The notes under the pieces: generated by a model
Databases searched by the model: none
Told to the model about the DNA's origin: nothing
The model's input: the letters and a program-made list of their open reading frames with translations, nothing else
From: Verrucomicrobiota bacterium JB023
Lineage (GTDB): Bacteria; Verrucomicrobiota; Verrucomicrobiia; Verrucomicrobiales; Akkermansiaceae
NCBI GenBank assembly: GCA_030673895.1
Contig: JAUTCR010000050.1
Location: forward strand, 1-64,000
Reading direction: 5' to 3'
DNA: 64,000 nucleotides
Translations under genes and position numbers: made by a program
Part shown: one piece after another, positions 3,988 through 55,638 of the stretch
How positions within the stretch are numbered: the stretch's first letter is position 1
Layout: the number at the start of each line of letters is the position of its first letter

Positions 3988-5451
3988 TCAAGCTCCTACC
4001 AAGTCCAAGAGAGGTTGGGCGTAAACGCCGAGGATGATGATCAGAGCGGCTGATGGGTAAACGACCGCCTTAGTGATGGGGGAGAGATAAATCTCAGGCC
4101 CATTGGCAGAAGGATTCCAGAACATGGTCCGGATGACCTTGAAGTAGTAATAGAAGCCGGCAGTGACCCCGATGAACGCGACGATGACGGGGAGCCAGAG
4201 CCCGGCCTTAACTGCGACGCCAAAGGCAAAGAATTTACCGATGAACCCGACGGTCAGGGGCAGGCCAGCAAGAGCGGCAAAGATGATGGTCAGCGTCCAG
4301 GCAAGTGCGGGATGGGTCTTTCCAAGTCCGGCCAGAGAGGCGATGGACTCAGTGCCCGTCGACTGAGCAATGGATTGTAGGGCGAAAAATGCGGCCACCG
4401 TCATGACAAGGTAGGTCGCAAGATAGATGGCGACGACTTGGGGAGAGGAGAGCGCGTTCTCGGATGCAGGCTGCCAAGCCGCGACGGCGAGGAGAATGAA
4501 TCCGGCATTCGCGATGGAGGAGTAAGCGAGCAGGCGCTTGAGGTTGGTTTGGGCAATGGCAGCCAGGTTGCCGATGAGAAGAGTGGCAGCGGCGATGATG
4601 GAGAGGATAATGACGGCGTTGTTCTTGGTCAGTTCGCTGTCTAGGAATGGCTGTAGGATCCGGAGGGCGACGATGAAGCCGACGGCCTTGGAGCCGACGG
4701 AGAGGAAGGTCGTGGTGGGGGTTGGGGCCCCTTGGTAAACGTCGGGAATCCAGAGATGCATGGGAGCGGCGCCAACTTTGAAGGCGAGGGCGACGAGGAT
4801 GAGGGCGAGGCCAAAGAGGATGGCTGTGCGTGTTTCCGTCGCCATTTGCTCATCCAAGACGGTGGAAATAACCTCCAAATTCATGCTCCCGGTTCCGCCG
4901 TAAATCCAAGCGATTCCATAGACGAGGAAGCCAGTGGAAAGCGCTCCAAGGATGAGATATTTGATCCCGGCTTCCAAGCTGCCGACATTTCGCCGCATGT
5001 AGGCGACGAGGATATAAAAGGTGATGGTGGTGAGCTCGAGGGCGGCGAAAGCGGTGACAAGGTCCTTGGCTGAAGCCATCCACATCATGCCCGCACACGC
5101 GAAGAGAGGTAGGGCGAAGTACTCGGCAATGCCGTCTTCGCGTCCGGGATTTTCCGTGAAGCGAGAGAGGACTTTCTTGTAGTCGATGGCCATGAGAATG
5201 ACCAAGGCAGTAATGATGAGGGTGAAGCCCTTGAAAAACTTGGCAATGCGGTCCGAGGCATAGGCTCTGGAGATTTCATCGCCGGTGGCTGGTTCCGCGA
5301 CAAAAAGGAGGCCAAAGATGGCAAGGAGACCTCCGATCGCAATCCATCCGAGGAAGGACTTTCGTTCACGCGGAAAGAACGCTTCGGCCATCAGGATGAT
5401 GATGCCGAGCGCGACGACGAGAATTTCGAGGTGGTGAAGTTGAAGATTCAT
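3988..5451 (-). CDS. nuoN: NADH-quinone oxidoreductase subunit N
   Basis: 487 aa, about 14 hydrophobic segments; one of the three antiporter-like proton-pumping subunits of the membrane arm of complex I. The conserved core AAPMHLWIPDVYQGAPTP around residue 245 and the KRLLAYSSIANAGF helix are typical of NuoN/ND2. The length equals the family norm. It is the last gene of the nuoG-N operon, 45 bp after nuoM. The next minus-strand gene is a hypothetical 94 bp away, so transcription may end or run on there; no strong terminator was seen. Confidence 0.96.
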   Translation of the reverse strand: MNLQLHHLEILVVALGIIILMAEAFFPRERKSFLGWIAIGGLLAIFGLLFVAEPATGDEISRAYASDRIAKFFKGFTLIITALVILMAIDYKKVLSRFTENPGREDGIAEYFALPLFACAGMMWMASAKDLVTAFAALELTTITFYILVAYMRRNVGSLEAGIKYLILGALSTGFLVYGIAWIYGGTGSMNLEVISTVLDEQMATETRTAILFGLALILVALAFKVGAAPMHLWIPDVYQGAPTPTTTFLSVGSKAVGFIVALRILQPFLDSELTKNNAVIILSIIAAATLLIGNLAAIAQTNLKRLLAYSSIANAGFILLAVAAWQPASENALSSPQVVAIYLATYLVMTVAAFFALQSIAQSTGTESIASLAGLGKTHPALAWTLTIIFAALAGLPLTVGFIGKFFAFGVAVKAGLWLPVIVAFIGVTAGFYYYFKVIRTMFWNPSANGPEIYLSPITKAVVYPSAALIIILGVYAQPLLDLVGA

Positions 5452-5496
5452 GATCTGACCGCAAAAGGTAAGGCGTGTGATTGGGAGGCTGGCGAG

Positions 5497-7053
5497 TTAG
5501 CGGGATTCGTTAATGAGGAGGGCTGTCTCGGAGGTCGCGGGTGAGGCGCTCTCAACGAGGACGGGGCTGGGCTGAACGGTTTGGCGCTGGAACAGCTGCA
5601 GCAGGAGGTTTGGGTAGATCCCAACGGCTAAGAGCGCGAGTGACAAGAGGAGGGCTGGTGCCTTCTCCTTCAAGGTGAGGTCGGCAACGTTTTCGGTGAT
5701 GCTGACGGGGCTTCCTTGGAAGATCTGCCGGATTGCGCGCAGCATATAGATGGCACTGATTACCACCCCAAAAATCGCGATGATGGTGGCAATTTGGACA
5801 GGTCCGAGAGGCTCGGTGTAGGTCCAGTTCTTGAAACCGGAGAGGAAGACAGCGGCTTCGCCCGCGAAGTTTGCCAAGCCAGGAAGACCGATGGACGCCA
5901 TGCCGGCGAGACCGAAGAGAAAGCAGAGGGCAGGAGTCGATTTGCCCAAGCCTCCGAGATTGGCCATGGTGAGAGTGCCAGTCTTGCCTTCAATTTGGTC
6001 GGAGAGAGCAAAGAGGAGAGCAATCGAAATACCGTGCCCGAACATCAGGAGCGTGGCTGCGGGGAGAGCAAGCGGATTGGCGATAGTCGACTCCGCTGCA
6101 ATGAGGGCGGCAAAGGCCAAAAAGATGTAGCCCATGTGCATCACGGACGAATTGGCCAGCATGCCATCCAGACGCTTTTGATTCAGGGTAACAAACCCGA
6201 CCCAGAGAATATTGGCGAGAAGAAGAATGATTAGCAGGGTGAGCCAAGGTTTCAGGCCCTCGCTGACCATCGGATAGAGACGGAAGAGACCGTAGAGACC
6301 AAATTTTTTCAAAACGCCTGCATGAAGCATGGCGATCGGCGTGGGGGCAGATGCGTAGGCGGGAGCTGCCCAAGAATGAAAGGGAAAGAGAGAGACGAGG
6401 GTGCCGAATCCAATAAGAAGAAGTGCGGCAATGCCTTTCTGCGCTGCCGGGTCGATAGGACTGGCAAGCAATTCGCTGAAGAGCAGGCTCGATGAACCGC
6501 TGGCTCCAACCAGCCAGAGAAGTCCGGCCAGAAGCACAATTGAGCCAAAGGCGAGGTAAAGCGTGATCTTCCAAGCGGCTTCCTTGCGGTCACCTTTGCC
6601 TAGCATCCCAATCATCAGGAAAGTGGGAATGAGGGCAAGCTCGTGAAAGGCGTAGAAGAAAAAGAGGTCGGTGGAGAGGAAAGCACCCAATGCGCCCACC
6701 GAGATGAGGAGAATGGATGAGAACCAGAGGCGCTCCCGCCCCTCGGGACATCTGCTGGCCATAATGGCGGCCAAGGTGACGATGGTCGTGAGCAAGACGA
6801 GAATGACCGACATGGCATCGGGCAACCCGAGCGCTAGTGTGATCTCGGGCTTACTGAGCACTTGATACTCGAAGGCTCCCAGCGAGCTATCGCCCTGTTG
6901 CTGCCAGACGATGGCCGAAATCAGGGCGATTCCGAATGAGCCAAGCGAAGCAATCAAGGCGAGGCTCTTGGCAGGGCCTCCGGCAATGATGCCGACAAGG
7001 GCGACTAGCGGCAGGGCTAGCAGAATCAAGAGAAAGGGAAGTTGATCAAACAT
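5497..7053 (-). CDS. nuoM: NADH-quinone oxidoreductase subunit M
   Basis: 518 aa, about 14 transmembrane helices; antiporter-like proton-translocating subunit of complex I. Diagnostic segments are FYAFHELALIPTFLMIG (pumping Glu in helix 5), FPFHSWAAPAYASAPTPIAM and the helix with SVMHMGYIF. The spacing to nuoL (43 bp) and nuoN (45 bp) on one strand shows a single operon. The C-terminus carries an extra polar tail after the last helix. Confidence 0.96.
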   Translation of the reverse strand: MFDQLPFLLILLALPLVALVGIIAGGPAKSLALIASLGSFGIALISAIVWQQQGDSSLGAFEYQVLSKPEITLALGLPDAMSVILVLLTTIVTLAAIMASRCPEGRERLWFSSILLISVGALGAFLSTDLFFFYAFHELALIPTFLMIGMLGKGDRKEAAWKITLYLAFGSIVLLAGLLWLVGASGSSSLLFSELLASPIDPAAQKGIAALLLIGFGTLVSLFPFHSWAAPAYASAPTPIAMLHAGVLKKFGLYGLFRLYPMVSEGLKPWLTLLIILLLANILWVGFVTLNQKRLDGMLANSSVMHMGYIFLAFAALIAAESTIANPLALPAATLLMFGHGISIALLFALSDQIEGKTGTLTMANLGGLGKSTPALCFLFGLAGMASIGLPGLANFAGEAAVFLSGFKNWTYTEPLGPVQIATIIAIFGVVISAIYMLRAIRQIFQGSPVSITENVADLTLKEKAPALLLSLALLAVGIYPNLLLQLFQRQTVQPSPVLVESASPATSETALLINESR

Positions 7054-47454: not shown

Positions 47455-47925
47455 CTAACAGCAGCCGGAGCCAGGCGCGCAGCAGGCGTCTTGGTCTTCG
47501 CTTTTTGGCGCAATCCCGCAGACATCTTTGTCCAAGCAGTCCGTGTGCTTGGTGGTCAGAATAAGGGTCACGTGACCGTCTCCATTCGATTCGATACTCT
47601 CGATGGGAAAGTTGGACACGTAAGGATACTCGACTTCGACCTCGACAGGCAACTGCTCGGTGGGAATGACCGGTCCACCATGGTCGAGGATCTTGAGGAA
47701 ACGGGAAACAGGGATTCGATGATCCACATCATCCGCGACATAAACTTGCAGTTGACACCTTCCCTCGTGCCGGATGGTGCCGCCGCAATCGATGAAATCC
47801 TTTTTCACGAAGGCCACCTCCGTGACATGGAAGTGAGCTGGGACGAGTTCTCCGTCGGGAAGCTTGATCTGCAATTGTTCGTCGTTGAAGGGAGCGATCG
47901 ATTTCTTTAGTTCTGCAATGGTCAT
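47455..47925 (-). CDS. DUF6428 protein of arsenic operon, Cys-rich tail
   Basis: 156 aa, soluble. The core LPDGELVPAHFHVTEVAFVKKDFIDCGGTIR and the segment LILTTKHTDCLDKDVCGI (both quoted within limits as positions 24-54 and 120-138) match DUF6428, a family I recall from ars operons. The protein ends in a Cys-rich tail, DACCAPGSGCC, with four Cys in 11 residues, plus earlier Cys in DCGG, DCLDKDVCG. These thiols could bind As(III), which is inference. It follows arsC by 6 bp and is the last gene before the terminator. Confidence 0.7.
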   Translation of the reverse strand: MTIAELKKSIAPFNDEQLQIKLPDGELVPAHFHVTEVAFVKKDFIDCGGTIRHEGRCQLQVYVADDVDHRIPVSRFLKILDHGGPVIPTEQLPVEVEVEYPYVSNFPIESIESNGDGHVTLILTTKHTDCLDKDVCGIAPKSEDQDACCAPGSGCC

Positions 47926-47931
47926 AAGTCG

Positions 47932-48369
47932 TTATTTTTCGATGTTGAGTGCCTCGCGATAGCCGTTCACATAGGCTGTTAGGGTGCGTCGAATTTGTTC
48001 GCGGGTTTCCCGGAAGACCTCCCTGACTTCGCTCTCGCTCCCAGTCGCATGAGCCGGGTCGTCGAAAGGCCAGTGATAGCGATTAACTTGGCCTGGGAAG
48101 GCCGGACACGCTTGGTCGGCATGGCCACAAACCGTGATGACGGTATCGATTCCTTGGTCAAGGAACTGATCCAGATGCTTGGAACTCTGTTGCGAGATAT
48201 CGATTCCAATCTCGCTCATGACCTCGATGGCCATGGGATGGACGTAGCCCGCGGGCTTGGAACCCGCGCTGTGGACGAGGAAGAGATCCCCAGCCATATC
48301 ACGAAGAAGACCCTCGGCGAGGTGGGAGCGGCAGGAATTACCGGTGCAAAGTATCAGGACGGATTTCAT
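47932..48369 (-). CDS. arsC: Arsenate reductase, thioredoxin-coupled (LMW-phosphatase fold)
   Basis: About 145 aa from ATG 48369. The longer frame to 48432 lies mostly inside arsR and is discarded. Reduces arsenate to arsenite. The phosphatase loop C8-TGNS-C13-R14 binds arsenate; Cys81 and Cys88 in [14 protein letters not shown] are the relay cysteines of the thioredoxin-linked class, and [11 protein letters not shown] closes the fold with its conserved DP. The gene starts 11 bp after the arsR stop. No arsenite efflux gene (acr3 or arsB) follows. Confidence 0.93.
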
Positions 48370-48380
48370 AGCATGATTAT

Positions 48381-48656
48381 CTAACAGCAGATGCCAGGTT
48401 TGGTTTCGCAAAGCTCGGGGCGTCCCTGACAACAGTCTTCAACCAAATAGGCCAAAAGCTCTTTGACCGCCGGATTGGCAATGGAATAGACGACCGAACG
48501 TCCTTCCCGCCGGCTGGTGACCAACTGGGCATGGGACAATTCCTTCAGATGAAAGGAGAGAGTGTTCGCCGGGGTGTCGAGGGCCGCAGCCAGTTCTCCC
48601 GCAGGGAGACCGGTCGGTGACTCACGGATGAGGGCCCGGAACACCTGCAATCTCAC
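48381..48656 (-). CDS. arsR: ArsR-family transcriptional repressor
   Basis: 91 aa from GTG 48656. Winged helix: [38 protein letters not shown] (residues 3-40) with the recognition helix [10 protein letters not shown], then the wing [11 protein letters not shown]. The C-terminus has [18 protein letters not shown], clustered Cys likely to sense As(III). In-frame codons upstream encode the conserved start of the family (ETKQAVNCLAALAHP), yet that stretch contains no ATG, GTG or TTG before a TGA. Either the protein begins at this internal GTG, lacking helix 1, or a rare ATC start is used. The palindromic operator overlaps that upstream stretch. Confidence 0.85.
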
Positions 48657-50755: not shown

Positions 50756-53440
50756 CTAGACGAGGGCCCTTGCCGACTGCAGGGTATCGATATCCTCAGG
50801 TCCTTTGTCACGGCGAATCGACTTGATGCGCGGGAAGCGGAGAGCCAGGCCGGAGTTATGCCTCTTCGATGGGTTGATCGAATCGAATGCAATCTCGAGA
50901 ACCACCGTTGGTTCGACCCAATGGACGCGTCGCTTCTTCTCAACGGTGGTTCGCTTGAAGTGCTCGGTGAGCTCTTCAATCTCCTCATCGGTGAGACCTG
51001 AGTAGGCCTTGCCCAAGGTGAGGAGAGTTCCCGTCGTTTGGTCTCTCACTGCAAAGGTATAATCCGAGAGCAGTTCAGCCCGTTTGCCATGCCCTTGCTG
51101 GGCGGCGACGACGACGCAATCAAGAGTAGGCATCACTCCCTTGAGCTTGAGCCAGGACTTGCCCCGCCTCCCCGGCGAGTATCCAGAGGTCGGATCCTTG
51201 GCAATGAGTCCTTCGTGGCCTTGCCCCAGTGATTCCTTGAAGTGGCTCTCAATCTCCTCGACCGTCCGGGCCTGGTGCAGCTCGATACGATGAAAGGGCT
51301 CGGCCAAGACAAGTGACTCAAGCTTCCTACGACGTTCCAGATACGGGAAATCCAGTAGGTCTTCTCCCTCCAACCAAAGGAGGTCGAAAGCCACGAAGCG
51401 GACCGGAATGGCTTCCCCGAGGAAAAGATCGCCCTGATGCCTTTTGCGTCCCAGCCGCTTCTGGAGGTCGAAGAAGTTGAGCTGCTTGCCCTCCGCGAAG
51501 GCAATGAGTTCGCCGTCCAAAAGACAGGCTTGCTCGAGCTTGTCTCGCGCGGCGGTGAGAATCTCCGGAAATTCATCGTCCAGCGCTCTCAAGTCGCGGG
51601 AATAGAGCGAAACCCGATCTGCGGTGACGTGCAGCTGAGCCCGGATGCCATCGTATTTGGGCTCGAGGTAGATTGCCTTGGGCTCCTCCGCCTCACCGAA
51701 GCGATTGAAGATGGCTGCAGCGGTTTGTTCGGGGGAGGCGAGCATGGGCGAGAGGGGGGAGTGCGGCCGCAAGCTGGCTTCACCCAGCCGTCCGTCCTTC
51801 GCTAGCAGTGCGACCTCGGGGAGACTCCCCAAGAGCATATGGGCGCGGCGGACCTCGCCGCCTTCGACCGAAAAGGCTTCGGCGATCCCTTCTTCCAGGA
51901 GTCCGGCCTTCAAGCCGGCGCGCAAGTCTCCTGTGAGTAGGCGGACAAGTAGTTCCGCCTCTCGTGGATGCAGCTTCCTAAAGCCATCCGCCAGCAGGCT
52001 CACCTTCTGTAGCGAACTGGGATGACTCTTGAGTTGGGTGAACAGTTCAGAGAACTCCTCCAGCTGAGTCCAAGTTGGTTTGCCCACGGGGTGCTGCTCC
52101 AGCATGAGTCGAGTTGTCCGGGCAGCATCAGCTGTCGCCGAGGAGACCTGTCGATAACGGGCGGTCGGCGCCTTGGTCGCCTCGAGAAGAGCTTGGCGAA
52201 TGATGGCTGTTCCGAGGGCCAGCGCACTCCCATCCGGAAGGAGGCGGTGGGAAAGAAAGGCCACGGTGTCTTGGAGACGTTGATCAGGAAGTTCACGGAG
52301 ATGGTCGGCCAAGAGGGCGACTTTACGAAGCCGGGAGGACGAGGCGGTCACCTCGTCGACGAGGGTGGTGAGGTCGGCAATTTCAGTCTGACGCAGCGGG
52401 ATCGGCTTCCTCTTAATCGCATTGGCAGCTGGCTCGGGCTGTTTGGCCAGAGGCAGCTCGATCTGGTCATCGCCGGTGAAGGACCAGGCTTCGAAGCCAT
52501 GGTGGCGGAGGGTGGCGGCGAACTCCCTGGTGTAGCCGTGAATTGTGTAGATGCGGCGGGGACGCACCCGCTGGACCGTCTCGAGGAGGGCGGGGTAGTC
52601 CGCGTGATCGGAGAGTGGGTAGGCCTCGTCGGTTTGATAACGGTATTTTGCCCCCGGACTCATTGCCCAGCCTGACAGCATGGCCACGCGCCGATTCTTC
52701 AGAGACCGGATTTGCTTGGAACGCACCGCGTTGGGTGGCGCGACCAGGACATGACCGGCCGGCAGCTGGCCTTCGTATCGATCAGGCACCTCGATCGGGG
52801 AGCCAGCTTCAGCGCAAGCGCGCGACATTTCGTGGACGGACTTGTGGGCGAGGACGGGAATACGGTGATGATGCAGGAGGGCGATAGCCTCCTGCGCCTT
52901 GCCCAGAGAATAACCCAGGAGGATGGGTGGAGCCCCCTCGTCCAAGGTGCTACGGACGAAGTGGAGAATGGCGGACTCAATCGCCGCCTGAGGAGGGAAG
53001 ACGTAGCTGGGTAGCCCGAAAGTGGTCTCCATAATCAGGGTATCCGCCTGCACCAACCGCGCGGGTTGGCAGGTCCGCGACGGCCTGAGCTTGAAGTCGC
53101 CGGTGTAGAGGAGGGTGGCCTTCGTCTGGCGGTCGGTAACGTGCAGCATCGCCGAGCCAAAGATGTGGCCGGCGGGGAGGAGGCGTAAGCGATGACCATT
53201 GAAGTCGAGGGGGACATCAAAGTCGATTGGCTGAAGCCGTTCCTCCGCGACGTTGAAGCGATCCTTGAGAAGTCGCGCCGTCGCCGTCGAGCAGATGATG
53301 CGCTCATGCCGAGCAAAGTGGTCGGCGTGAGCGTGGGAAATAAAGGCCACTGACTGGGGGCGATGAGGATCGAGAGCAAGCCCGGGACCGGGCAGATGAA
53401 GATGGGGTGATGTGATGAGCTTGACCTCCGCGCCGGGCAT
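50756..53440 (-). CDS. Fusion: MBL-fold DNA exonuclease and ATP-dependent DNA ligase
   Basis: 894 aa, two enzymes in one chain. Residues 1-335 are a beta-CASP-type metallo-beta-lactamase nuclease: SHAHADHF Zn motif, LPAGHIFGSAML, LLYTGDFKLRPSRTC, YSLGKAQEAI, PLSDHADY and IHGYTREFA. This corresponds to the 'ligase-associated exonuclease'. Residues about 360-894 are an ATP-dependent ligase: an N-terminal DNA-binding domain, EPKYDGIRAQLH near 593 with the adenylated Lys, LLDGELIAFAEG near 643, GLIAKDP near 743, SWLKLKG near 763, then an OB-fold. In other bacteria these are usually separate neighbouring genes with a helicase and a phosphodiesterase, neither of which is here. Likely DNA repair. 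Confidence 0.92.
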   Translation of the reverse strand: MPGAEVKLITSPHLHLPGPGLALDPHRPQSVAFISHAHADHFARHERIICSTATARLLKDRFNVAEERLQPIDFDVPLDFNGHRLRLLPAGHIFGSAMLHVTDRQTKATLLYTGDFKLRPSRTCQPARLVQADTLIMETTFGLPSYVFPPQAAIESAILHFVRSTLDEGAPPILLGYSLGKAQEAIALLHHHRIPVLAHKSVHEMSRACAEAGSPIEVPDRYEGQLPAGHVLVAPPNAVRSKQIRSLKNRRVAMLSGWAMSPGAKYRYQTDEAYPLSDHADYPALLETVQRVRPRRIYTIHGYTREFAATLRHHGFEAWSFTGDDQIELPLAKQPEPAANAIKRKPIPLRQTEIADLTTLVDEVTASSSRLRKVALLADHLRELPDQRLQDTVAFLSHRLLPDGSALALGTAIIRQALLEATKAPTARYRQVSSATADAARTTRLMLEQHPVGKPTWTQLEEFSELFTQLKSHPSSLQKVSLLADGFRKLHPREAELLVRLLTGDLRAGLKAGLLEEGIAEAFSVEGGEVRRAHMLLGSLPEVALLAKDGRLGEASLRPHSPLSPMLASPEQTAAAIFNRFGEAEEPKAIYLEPKYDGIRAQLHVTADRVSLYSRDLRALDDEFPEILTAARDKLEQACLLDGELIAFAEGKQLNFFDLQKRLGRKRHQGDLFLGEAIPVRFVAFDLLWLEGEDLLDFPYLERRRKLESLVLAEPFHRIELHQARTVEEIESHFKESLGQGHEGLIAKDPTSGYSPGRRGKSWLKLKGVMPTLDCVVVAAQQGHGKRAELLSDYTFAVRDQTTGTLLTLGKAYSGLTDEEIEELTEHFKRTTVEKKRRVHWVEPTVVLEIAFDSINPSKRHNSGLALRFPRIKSIRRDKGPEDIDTLQSARALV

Positions 53441-53631
53441 GACGTGTCAGGGTAGCCTTGATGTCGAGAATTGGCATGGCGAAATCGAGACTTCCTCTCA
53501 TTATCGCCGCGCAAAGAGCCGTGCCTTGTGTCAGTATCTGACGAGATTGTTACCGAGCGGGAATTCCTCGCAAGGGGCAGCCAGGCACAATGATGCTGCC
53601 GTTTTCGACCTGCAATTATTTAAACCGCCTT

Positions 53632-55638
53632 ATGAGAATCGAGTTTGTCACTGACACCTACGCGCCCGATGTGAACGGAGTTGCGATGACCTTGGGGCGT
53701 CTAGTCGAAGGATTACGCGAGCGGGGTCATCTGGTCCACGTTCTTCACACGGCCGAGCGCCGCACCGAGAGTGGTGAAACCACCCTGCCGTCACTTCCCC
53801 TTCCGGGATACAAGGAGGTGAGGGTGGGCCTACCGGGCTACCTCAAATTAATGCGCCGGTGGCAAAAGAAGCGCCCCGACGCGGTCTACGTGGCCACGGA
53901 AAGTCTGCTGGGGATGTCGGCCATCCGGGCCGCATCAATGCTGCGCATTCCTGTGGCCGCAGGCTTTCATACGAACTTTGACCAATACATGGAGCGCTAT
54001 CGCCTCCGTCGCCTCAAGCCAGCTGCGATGCGCTACCTGAAGAAGGTGCACAGCCGAGCCGATTGCACCTTTGCTCCTTCTCGCGAAGTGGTGGAAAAGC
54101 TGAAAAGCGAAGGCTTCCGCACGGTGCATTTGCTGGGGCGGGGGGTGGATACCAAGCTCTACCATCCGGACAAGCGAGTCGAAACCTTGCGGGCCGAGTG
54201 GAAGGCACAACCGGAAGATCCCGTCATCATCATGGTCGGACGGCTCGCTCCAGAAAAGAACATGGAGCTCGGCGTGCGAGCCTATCGCGAGATTCTCAAG
54301 ACTCACCCCGAGGCGAAATGCGTGGTCGTCGGAGACGGCCCGGTCCGCGAAAGCCTGTCTGCCGACAATCCGGACATCATCTTTGCCGGCGTGCGGCGGG
54401 ACGAGGAACTGGCAGCCCACTACGCTTCGGCCGACGTCCTTCTCTTCCCCAGTGAGACCGAGACCTTCGGCAATGTTCTCTTGGAGGGCATGGCCAGCGG
54501 CCTGGCCACGGTGAGCTACGACTATGCCGCTGCCCGCCGATACGTGGAGCACGGGGTCTCCGGATACAAATCGGAGCAAGGCGATGAGAATGACTTCATT
54601 GCCCAAGCCAAGAAGGCGGTGACCGAGCGGCCTGGAAGCACGCTGCGCTCCGCTGCCTTCGCGAAAGTTGCCGAACTAGGCTGGGATCAGGTTGTCGACA
54701 CCTTCGAGAAGCAGCTCGACCAGATGAGCCAAGGAAGAGTGAACATGCGGACCGTGGGGAAAAAGAAGCCACGCAAGCTGGAATTCAAGACCCTCTTCAT
54801 CTCTGACGTCCACCTCGGCACGAAGGATAGCAAGGTCAAAGAGGTCATCGATCTCCTGAAGCATAGCAAATACGAGAAACTCGTTCTCAATGGAGACATC
54901 ATTGACGGCTGGGCTCTCAAACGGGGGAGCGAATGGAAGAAGAAGCACACCAAATTCGTCCGCACCGTTCTGAAGATCATGGAGAAGAAGGAGGTGATTT
55001 ATCTCCGTGGCAACCATGACGATATCCTCGACCGCTTTCTGCCTATCCAGTTCGGCCCGATGAAAATTGTGAAGGAGCATATCCATGAAGGCATCAACGG
55101 GAGGAAGTATCTCGTGGTGCATGGAGATGGCTTCGATACCGTCTCCACGGATCACAAGTGGCTCGCGGCTGCGGGAGCGGTCGGCTACGACGCCCTCCTC
55201 CGGGTCAATCGACTCTACAATCACTATCGGGCCTGGCGAGGACAGGAATACTTCTCCATGAGCAAGGCGGTGAAGGCCAAGGTGAAGCATGCGGTTTCAT
55301 TCGTGGACCGCTACCAGGAGCAGCTGCAGATGCTCGCCAAGCGCAAGGGCTGCGAAGGCATCATCTGCGGTCACATCCACACTCCAGCGGATGAGATGCT
55401 CGACGGGGTTCATTACCTCAACTCGGGCGATTGGGTGGAATCATTGAGCGCGGTCGTCGAGCATCTTGATGGCACTTTTGAGGTGCTTTATTACGAGGAA
55501 TTCCTGCAGCGCATTCACGACAGCTCGATTGAGCCCGAGACCGAGGAAGAGCGGGAGGCCGACGCCCTGATGCTGCGCGCGCAGGCCGAGATCGACCCCG
55601 AGGACGAGCCTCTCAAGCACGAACACGCCGTGGCCTAG
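53632..55638 (+). CDS. Fusion: GT4 glycosyltransferase and LpxH-like metallophosphoesterase
   Basis: About 668 aa from ATG 53632 (MRIEFVTDTYAPDVNGVAMT); the frame to 53590 adds an unlikely leader. Residues 1-375 are a GT-B family 4 glycosyltransferase (GFHTNFDQYMERYR, MVGRLAPEKNMEL, FPSETETFGNVLLEGMASGLA), like mannosyltransferases acting on lipids. Residues 385-640 are a calcineurin-like phosphoesterase resembling UDP-2,3-diacylglucosamine hydrolases: SDVHLG near 390, NGDIIDGW near 420, RGNHDDI near 460, VHGDGFD, GHIHTPA near 579. All metal ligands are present. A lipid-linked substrate and envelope glycolipid synthesis are inferred. The C-terminus is acidic. Confidence 0.9.
   Translation: MRIEFVTDTYAPDVNGVAMTLGRLVEGLRERGHLVHVLHTAERRTESGETTLPSLPLPGYKEVRVGLPGYLKLMRRWQKKRPDAVYVATESLLGMSAIRAASMLRIPVAAGFHTNFDQYMERYRLRRLKPAAMRYLKKVHSRADCTFAPSREVVEKLKSEGFRTVHLLGRGVDTKLYHPDKRVETLRAEWKAQPEDPVIIMVGRLAPEKNMELGVRAYREILKTHPEAKCVVVGDGPVRESLSADNPDIIFAGVRRDEELAAHYASADVLLFPSETETFGNVLLEGMASGLATVSYDYAAARRYVEHGVSGYKSEQGDENDFIAQAKKAVTERPGSTLRSAAFAKVAELGWDQVVDTFEKQLDQMSQGRVNMRTVGKKKPRKLEFKTLFISDVHLGTKDSKVKEVIDLLKHSKYEKLVLNGDIIDGWALKRGSEWKKKHTKFVRTVLKIMEKKEVIYLRGNHDDILDRFLPIQFGPMKIVKEHIHEGINGRKYLVVHGDGFDTVSTDHKWLAAAGAVGYDALLRVNRLYNHYRAWRGQEYFSMSKAVKAKVKHAVSFVDRYQEQLQMLAKRKGCEGIICGHIHTPADEMLDGVHYLNSGDWVESLSAVVEHLDGTFEVLYYEEFLQRIHDSSIEPETEEEREADALMLRAQAEIDPEDEPLKHEHAVA

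What the first reader, a model, noticed from the sequence alone, without database searches (positions are those of the whole stretch)
50756..53440. Ligase-associated MBL exonuclease fused to its ATP-dependent DNA ligase
Seen: one 894-aa chain with complete motif sets for both enzymes. Known: these proteins are normally separate members of a conserved repair island that also includes a DEXH helicase and a PdeM-type phosphodiesterase; neither is adjacent. The fusion supports direct substrate hand-over from end trimming to sealing.
Basis: partly seen in the sequence, partly recalled or inferred. Interest (0 to 1): 0.65.

Follow-up and report, generated by a model that had tools for sequence, protein, structure and literature searches.

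The report
Clamp-tethered nuclease-ligase fusion, dispensable ligase
A DNA-trimming enzyme and a DNA-sealing enzyme are joined in one bacterial protein, as already seen in print, but sequence comparison suggests that the trimming half is the core and carries a built-in hook for the ring-shaped DNA clamp, while the sealing half has been lost many times.

Summary
The 894-aa fusion is real: one open frame, MBL exonuclease (aa 14-320) plus complete ATP-dependent ligase (aa 355-893), catalytic residues kept. It is not new: print reports it in Opitutus terrae and in 13 metagenome sequences. In this class it is common: 50 of 226 sampled genomes. Helicase and PdeM are in the genome, on two other contigs. 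New here: (1) In the same clade the ligase was cut, killed or lost repeatedly while the nuclease stayed intact; with one fusion origin the tree needs 16 losses (10 forced by well-supported branches), and all 33 nuclease-only genomes searched have no ATP-dependent ligase. So hand-over to its own ligase is not what is always kept. (2) The nuclease ends in a peptide, QIELPL here, whose Gln is present in 104 of 104 fusion rows and 41 of 42 nuclease-only rows, where it is the protein's tail. It fits the sliding-clamp-binding motif; the genome's own Pol IV ends in QLELGL. Eight of eight haloarchaeal homologues have a PCNA-type PIP box at that place. Best reading: a clamp-tethered SNM1-like nuclease with the ligase as optional passenger. 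Clamp binding is inferred, not assayed.

The parts
50756..53440 (-). Nuclease-ligase fusion gene, 894 aa, ATG start, stop at 50756-50758
52481..53401 (-). MBL/beta-CASP (SNM1-like) exonuclease module, aa 14-320, all catalytic residues present
   Evidence: last domain strand aa 317-320 in the model
52448..52465 (-). Putative sliding-clamp (DnaN) binding peptide QIELPL, aa 326-331
   Evidence: Gln in 104/104 fusion rows and 41/42 nuclease-only rows; at the edge of the disordered linker; same peptide type ends the genome's own Pol IV
52379..52447 (-). Variable linker, aa 332-354
   Evidence: aa 329-340 pLDDT under 50; low column conservation
51890..52378 (-). Ligase DNA-binding domain (PF04675), aa 355-517
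51140..51748 (-). Ligase nucleotidyltransferase domain (PF01068), aa 565-767, with KYDG motif
51656..51658 (-). Codon of the predicted adenylated lysine K595
50804..51079 (-). Ligase OB domain (PF04679), aa 788-879, with RFPR motif

Best explanation
The protein is a two-enzyme DNA repair factor whose core is an SNM1-like MBL/beta-CASP nuclease that is held on the bacterial sliding clamp by a QLxLxL-type peptide at the end of the nuclease domain. Shown by sequence: one chain, two complete enzymes, the peptide and its conservation, one clade of fusions, repeated decay or loss of the ligase with the nuclease kept. Inferred: the peptide binds DnaN; the nuclease trims damaged or blocked DNA ends at clamp-loaded sites; the fused ligase, hung on the far side of a disordered linker from the peptide, seals the resulting nick as a passenger on the same clamp; where it is lost, a general ligase (NAD-dependent LigA, not searched here) is expected to seal instead. 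The Lhr-type helicase and PdeM, where kept, are co-workers of the same island.
For: Fusion and motifs. Clamp peptide: Gln326 is in 74/74 non-redundant and 104/104 of all fusion rows, in 29/30 and 41/42 nuclease-only rows, 8/8 and 11/11 truncated rows, 2/2 lysine-dead rows; the Q[LMI]x[LFMIW] core is in 69/74 fusion and 28/30 nuclease-only non-redundant rows against 0.0012 per position elsewhere in the same proteins. In 26 of 29 non-redundant nuclease-only rows with the Gln it lies within 10 residues of the C-terminus. Separate-gene MBLs of the phylum: 1 of 18 rows, and that row (L120) is a frame-broken fusion. Model: domain ends at strand 317-320, aa 329-340 disordered. Own Pol IV ends QLELGL; all 16 Y-family polymerase frames identified among 31 loci (own genome and relatives) have the core in their last 40 residues; the genome has DnaN. 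Print: motif QLxLF/QxxLF, Hda QLSLPL binds with KD about 280 nM, usual C-terminal place. Eight of eight haloarchaeal homologues end in QxxLxxF at the same place, fitting the haloarchaeal PIP box QxxLxxFx. Ligase loss.
Against: No binding data. The motif pattern was chosen after seeing the tails. Position 3 is mostly Glu, where print favours Asp or Ser. Five of 74 non-redundant fusion rows and 2 of 30 nuclease-only rows lack the strict core, and nuclease-only row L118 lacks the peptide altogether. The canonical separate-gene bacterial nucleases seen here lack it at this place (17 rows of the phylum; 6 of 7 bacterial plasmid rows, the seventh being a broken gene), so clamp binding by such a tail is not a general feature of the island. 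The ligase lysine is kept in 104 of 106 full-length rows, so the ligase is under selection where kept. The eight archaeal rows are relatives of one another.
Confidence: 0.66

Rival explanations
1. Hand-over fusion: covalent linkage itself channels a trimmed end from nuclease to ligase, and this coupling is the selected function.
For: Whole fusion kept in 50 of 226 class genomes; catalytic residues of both halves intact in the large majority of 106 full-length rows; the two genes are adjacent and overlapping in other bacteria; a ligase half of a fusion was active in print.
Against: 16 ligase losses under one fusion origin, 10 forced by well-supported branches; all 33 nuclease-only genomes searched have no PF01068 ligase; the linker is disordered and variable.
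Confidence: 0.2
2. The conserved QxxL peptide is a structural end-cap of the nuclease domain, not a clamp ligand.
For: It follows the last strand closely and a short helical turn covers 324-326 in the model; the Gln is as invariant as catalytic residues.
Against: Canonical family members do without it; aa 329-340 have pLDDT under 50; it is the free tail in nuclease-only forms; archaeal homologues carry the archaeal type of clamp motif there.
Confidence: 0.17
3. Ordinary gene fusion with little functional consequence, kept by chance after a stop codon was lost between two overlapping genes.
For: Canonical order is exonuclease then ligase with overlapping ends, so one small change makes the fusion.
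Against: The fusion persists across 19 family codes of the class and its ligases form one clade.
Confidence: 0.15

Closest known systems
Nuclease-LigB ligase fusions of Opitutus terrae and the Antarctic Dry Valley metagenome (PMC10140301, passages read; the O. terrae report is Ejaz and Shuman 2018, not held, known through that paper)
   Same: Same domain order and same island enzymes; the Dry Valley fusions, like this one, are not beside helicase and phosphodiesterase.
   Different: The passages seen do not mention a clamp peptide or repeated ligase loss; in O. terrae the fusion lies in the island.
Ligase-associated repair island (Lhr-type helicase, PdeM/MPE, MBL exonuclease, LigB-type ligase)
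   Same: All four activities are encoded in the window genome.
   Different: Exonuclease and ligase are fused and divergent (scores under cut-offs); the parts lie on three contigs.
Human SNM1A (DCLRE1A)
   Same: Best solved relative of the nuclease half (E about 7e-16); SNM1A is brought to damage through a PIP box that binds PCNA.
   Different: In SNM1A the PIP box precedes the nuclease; no ligase attached.
Plant DNA ligase 6
   Same: Ligase catalytic domain plus MBL domain with beta-CASP motif in one protein (PMC3198793, passages read).
   Different: Plant sequence could not be compared here; common origin untested.

Membership tests
Ligase-associated exonuclease (TIGR04122) | Score over curated cut-off 325 bits | tested here: not met
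   214.5 bits over aa 19-320: related, but a divergent subfamily
Cisplatin damage response ligase (TIGR04120) | Score over curated cut-off 400 bits | tested here: not met
   324.6 bits; fused ligases form one clade on a long branch from the separate bacterial ones
ATP-dependent DNA ligase superfamily | DNA-binding, nucleotidyltransferase and OB domains with KxDG lysine | tested here: met
   Pfam cut-offs passed; K595; fold matches archaeal ligases
MBL/beta-CASP nuclease | Metal and beta-CASP residues (motif names recalled) | tested here: met
   RMMBL PF07521 over cut-off; SNM1A match
Repair island with Lhr-type helicase and PdeM | Helicase and PdeM in the genome | tested here: met
   both over cut-off
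Repair island with Lhr-type helicase and PdeM | Genes adjacent | tested here: not met
   contigs C50, C35, C67; adjacent in G274, G443, G018, G088, G099, G010, G143 by coordinates
Published nuclease-LigB fusion | RMMBL domain N-terminal to ligase N domain in one chain | tested here: met
   against the description read
Sliding-clamp client | Exposed QLxLF/QLxLxL-type peptide | tested here: met
   sequence and model only
Sliding-clamp client | Binding to DnaN | not testable with these tools
   needs an assay
Plant DNA ligase 6 | Common ancestry of the fusion | not testable with these tools
   no plant genomes held in the searched collections

The most novel reading that the evidence does not exclude
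The MBL exonuclease of this prokaryotic repair island is a sliding-clamp client in both Bacteria and Archaea, with the peptide type switched to fit the host's clamp: beta-clamp motif in Verrucomicrobiia, PCNA PIP box in haloarchaea, at the same C-terminal place, parallel to the PIP box of human SNM1A. The fused ligase is a dispensable passenger, and proteins reduced to nuclease plus ligase DNA-binding domain have in 3 of 7 cases a second QLxL tail.
Probability: 0.6. Interest if true: 0.75.

Novelty: new variant of a known kind. Interest (0 to 1): 0.6.

Why it matters
The Dry Valley paper says that the role and target lesions of this widespread repair island are unknown. A clamp-binding peptide would place its nuclease at replication or gap-filling sites, as for SNM1A, and makes the question testable with a six-residue peptide and a two-residue mutant. 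Natural nuclease-only and ligase-dead relatives are ready-made separation-of-function variants that show which half matters.

Tried and rejected
Missed frameshift or two genes: rejected. Dead half in the window protein: rejected. Fusion unique to this genome: rejected. Fusion outside the phylum: of the plasmid records whose match spans both halves, two were read for this; L204 has two open frames and L205 two genes; other phyla were otherwise not surveyed. Phages: 24 records matched, none covering 80% of the query; the 10 rows listed matched ligase parts only. All nuclease-only forms as one clade: rejected, AU p 4e-41 on a thinned set of 75 rows; the same test for all rows without active ligase did not finish. 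Common origin with plant ligase 6: not testable here. The quick tree method was used throughout, so counts of losses are rough, and gene transfer between lineages could mimic some losses.

Rows dropped before counts: one search kept 182 MBL rows of at least 250 aligned residues (L104 and other short rows fell out), 137 after thinning at 80% identity within a class; one search left out L118, L120, L123, L182, L184, the contig-edge rows and most separate rows (5 kept); one search also left out L174, eight near-duplicate nuclease-only rows, one truncated row and about half of the fusions. The motif counts kept L118, L120, L123, L182 and L184. The 106 full-length rows hold a few genomes twice (for example L015 and L067). 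One search found a frame by a signature in 16 of 31 loci; 15 gave none and were not counted.

Literature: searches for this nuclease with clamp, fusion or island words listed no paper that, by title and opening abstract, deals with a clamp motif in it; the library lacks most subscription journals.

Full report
Observation. Window 50756-53440 (-) is one ATG frame of 894 aa without a stop. NCBIfam places a ligase-associated exonuclease at aa 19-320 and an ATP-dependent ligase at aa 357-893; both scores, 214.5 and 324.6 bits, are under the curated cut-offs. Pfam gives ligase N, M and C domains and RMMBL over their cut-offs and a general MBL domain just under. Solved relatives are archaeal DNA ligases for the second half and human SNM1A for the first, and the model's best fold matches are archaeal ligases (the 50 rows shown are ligases or ligase complexes). 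A genome of the same genus, by coordinates the record of Roseibacillus persicicus, has the same chain at 66% identity. The finding is therefore real and not a sequencing accident.

Catalytic residues. On a joint alignment the window protein has D24, HAHADH, H92, D115, E138, H279, H301 of the nuclease and K595, R600, R615, E644, E743, K765, K767, R860 and RFPR of the ligase (the assignment of roles is recalled knowledge of these families).

The rest of the island. The helicase (987 bits, cut-off 850) lies on contig C35 and PdeM (175 bits, cut-off 150) on C67; the window is C50. In 226 genomes of the class, 59 have a TIGR04120-type ligase at 1e-40; by open-frame size, and by the frames read where a stretch was fetched, 50 are of the fused type (two of these, G085 and G478, apparently cut by contig ends) and 9 are separate; 26 of the 50 have the helicase at 1e-80, the same 26 have PdeM at 1e-20, and 24 have neither (tallied). 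Fusion, helicase and PdeM are neighbours in G274, G443, G018, G088, G099, G010 and G143 by their coordinates, so the scattered state in the window genome is likely derived. In other bacteria the exonuclease gene precedes the ligase gene with overlapping or touching ends, in three of four read cases followed by helicase and PdeM (not), which is an easy start for a fusion.

Known in print. The Dry Valley paper (PMC10140301, passages read) describes 13 such fusions, credits the earlier sighting in Opitutus terrae to Ejaz and Shuman 2018 (not held), shows the ligase half of one to be active and reports its nuclease half insoluble. It states that the role of the pathway is not known. So the fusion is not a discovery.

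The ligase half decays, the nuclease half does not. Among 182 MBL rows, 104 are full-length fusions with the ligase lysine, 2 are full length without it (L089, Luteolibacter marinus, DYQG; L181, QFDG), 11 end inside the ligase (DNA-binding domain only in L042, L092, L095, L097, L098, L114, and L096, which runs on into another protein; nucleotidyltransferase without OB and without the lysine in L043/L157, L158, L087), 42 are nuclease alone in their locus, 18 were filed as separate genes and 5 are cut by contig edges. Wherever a row covers the sites, the listed nuclease residues stay; the exceptions are L182 (N92, R279, start cut by the contig edge) and L174 (a frame break), both with the ligase lysine kept, and L104, whose frame misses the nuclease start. 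Of the 38 genomes searched for PF01068 at 1e-5, the 33 nuclease-only ones have no hit; the other five are the window genome, G458, G286 and G223 with the degenerate forms themselves, and G215 with one weak short hit. G215 still has helicase and PdeM. A helicase hit at 1e-60 was found in 4 of the 38.

Tree. All fusion, truncated and nuclease-only MBLs fall on one side of a fully supported branch, with L120 and L123, two of the 18 rows filed as separate; L120 is a frame-broken fusion and L123 a long-branch planctomycete row. Nuclease-only rows sit in several places inside the fusions. With one fusion origin, 16 losses of active ligase are needed; 10 changes are forced by well-supported branches. 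Holding 21 nuclease-only rows as one clade is rejected (p 4e-41). The 38 fused ligases tested are one clade (support only 83) far from 16 separate and 7 other ligases. These are quick trees; gene transfer is not excluded.

The junction peptide. At the end of the nuclease domain every fusion row has Gln at position 326 (104 of 104; 74 of 74 non-redundant), as do 41 of 42 nuclease-only, 11 of 11 truncated and 2 of 2 lysine-dead rows. The pattern Q[LMI]x[LFMIW] is there in 98 of 104 fusion and 40 of 42 nuclease-only rows; elsewhere in the same proteins (non-redundant set) it occurs at 103 of 83,927 positions. The pattern was set after seeing the tails, but the Gln came out invariant in the alignments, which make no use of it. 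In nuclease-only proteins the peptide is the tail: 26 of 29 non-redundant rows with the Gln end within 10 residues of it. What follows in fusions is a variable linker. In the model (28 sequences, mean pLDDT 88.6, pTM 0.62) the last strand is 317-320, a short turn follows at 324-326 and 329-340 is under pLDDT 50.

Why a clamp. Print gives the bacterial clamp motif as QLxLF or QxxLF, with Hda QLSLPL a tight binder (KD about 280 nM), often at a C-terminus (passages read). The window genome has DnaN, and its own Pol IV ends in QLELGL. Among 31 polymerase loci from the own genome and relatives, 16 gave a frame by my signature and all 16 have the core in their last 40 residues. Separate-gene MBLs of the phylum lack it (17 of 17 once L120 is set aside), as do six of seven bacterial plasmid rows; the seventh, L213, is a broken gene with QLGM at another place; L123 and L195 have related but non-matching tails, QQRLFF and QTELPL. 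Eight of eight haloarchaeal homologues, relatives of one another, end in QxxLxxF, the form of the haloarchaeal PIP box QxxLxxFx (passages read). Human SNM1A reaches damage through a PIP box (passages read). Three of seven proteins reduced to nuclease plus DNA-binding domain carry a further QLxL within 20 residues of their new C-terminus, a small number.

Reading. The most economical account is a nuclease tethered to the sliding clamp, with a fused ligase kept in many lineages and dispensable in others. That the peptide binds DnaN, that the nuclease acts at clamp-loaded ends, and that another ligase stands in after loss are inferences. The damage targeted is unknown; the family name 'cisplatin damage response' and the SNM1A likeness suggest crosslinks or blocked ends.

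Novelty. The architecture is known; the class-wide spread, the repeated ligase loss and the clamp peptide with its archaeal PIP counterpart were not found in the searches made. I file it as a new variant of a known kind.

Noticed in passing
window 53590-55638 (+): The divergent neighbour fuses a family 4 glycosyltransferase with a calcineurin-like (LpxH-like) phosphoesterase in one 682-aa frame.
   Followed up: no
window 47455-48656 (-): Short cluster that by eye resembles an arsenic resistance group: ArsR-like regulator, small arsenate reductase-like protein and a further small protein (names recalled from the translations, not tested).
   Followed up: no
L096, ORF of 750 aa around the match at 5001-6656: A nuclease plus ligase DNA-binding domain runs on in frame into what looks by eye like a YqgF/RuvX-type protein; a metagenome assembly, so possibly an artefact.
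   Followed up: no
L089 4974-7691: Luteolibacter marinus has a full-length fusion whose ligase lysine motif reads DYQG with two further motif changes: a natural ligase-dead fusion.
   Followed up: partly
L182 2-2554: The only unbroken frame with altered nuclease metal residues (N92, R279) but a kept ligase lysine; its start is cut by the contig edge.
   Followed up: partly
G425, G428, G448, G479, G487, G499, G502, G513: Eight genomes of family code f95 have helicase and PdeM but no TIGR04120-type ligase at 1e-40; their nuclease state was not checked.
   Followed up: no
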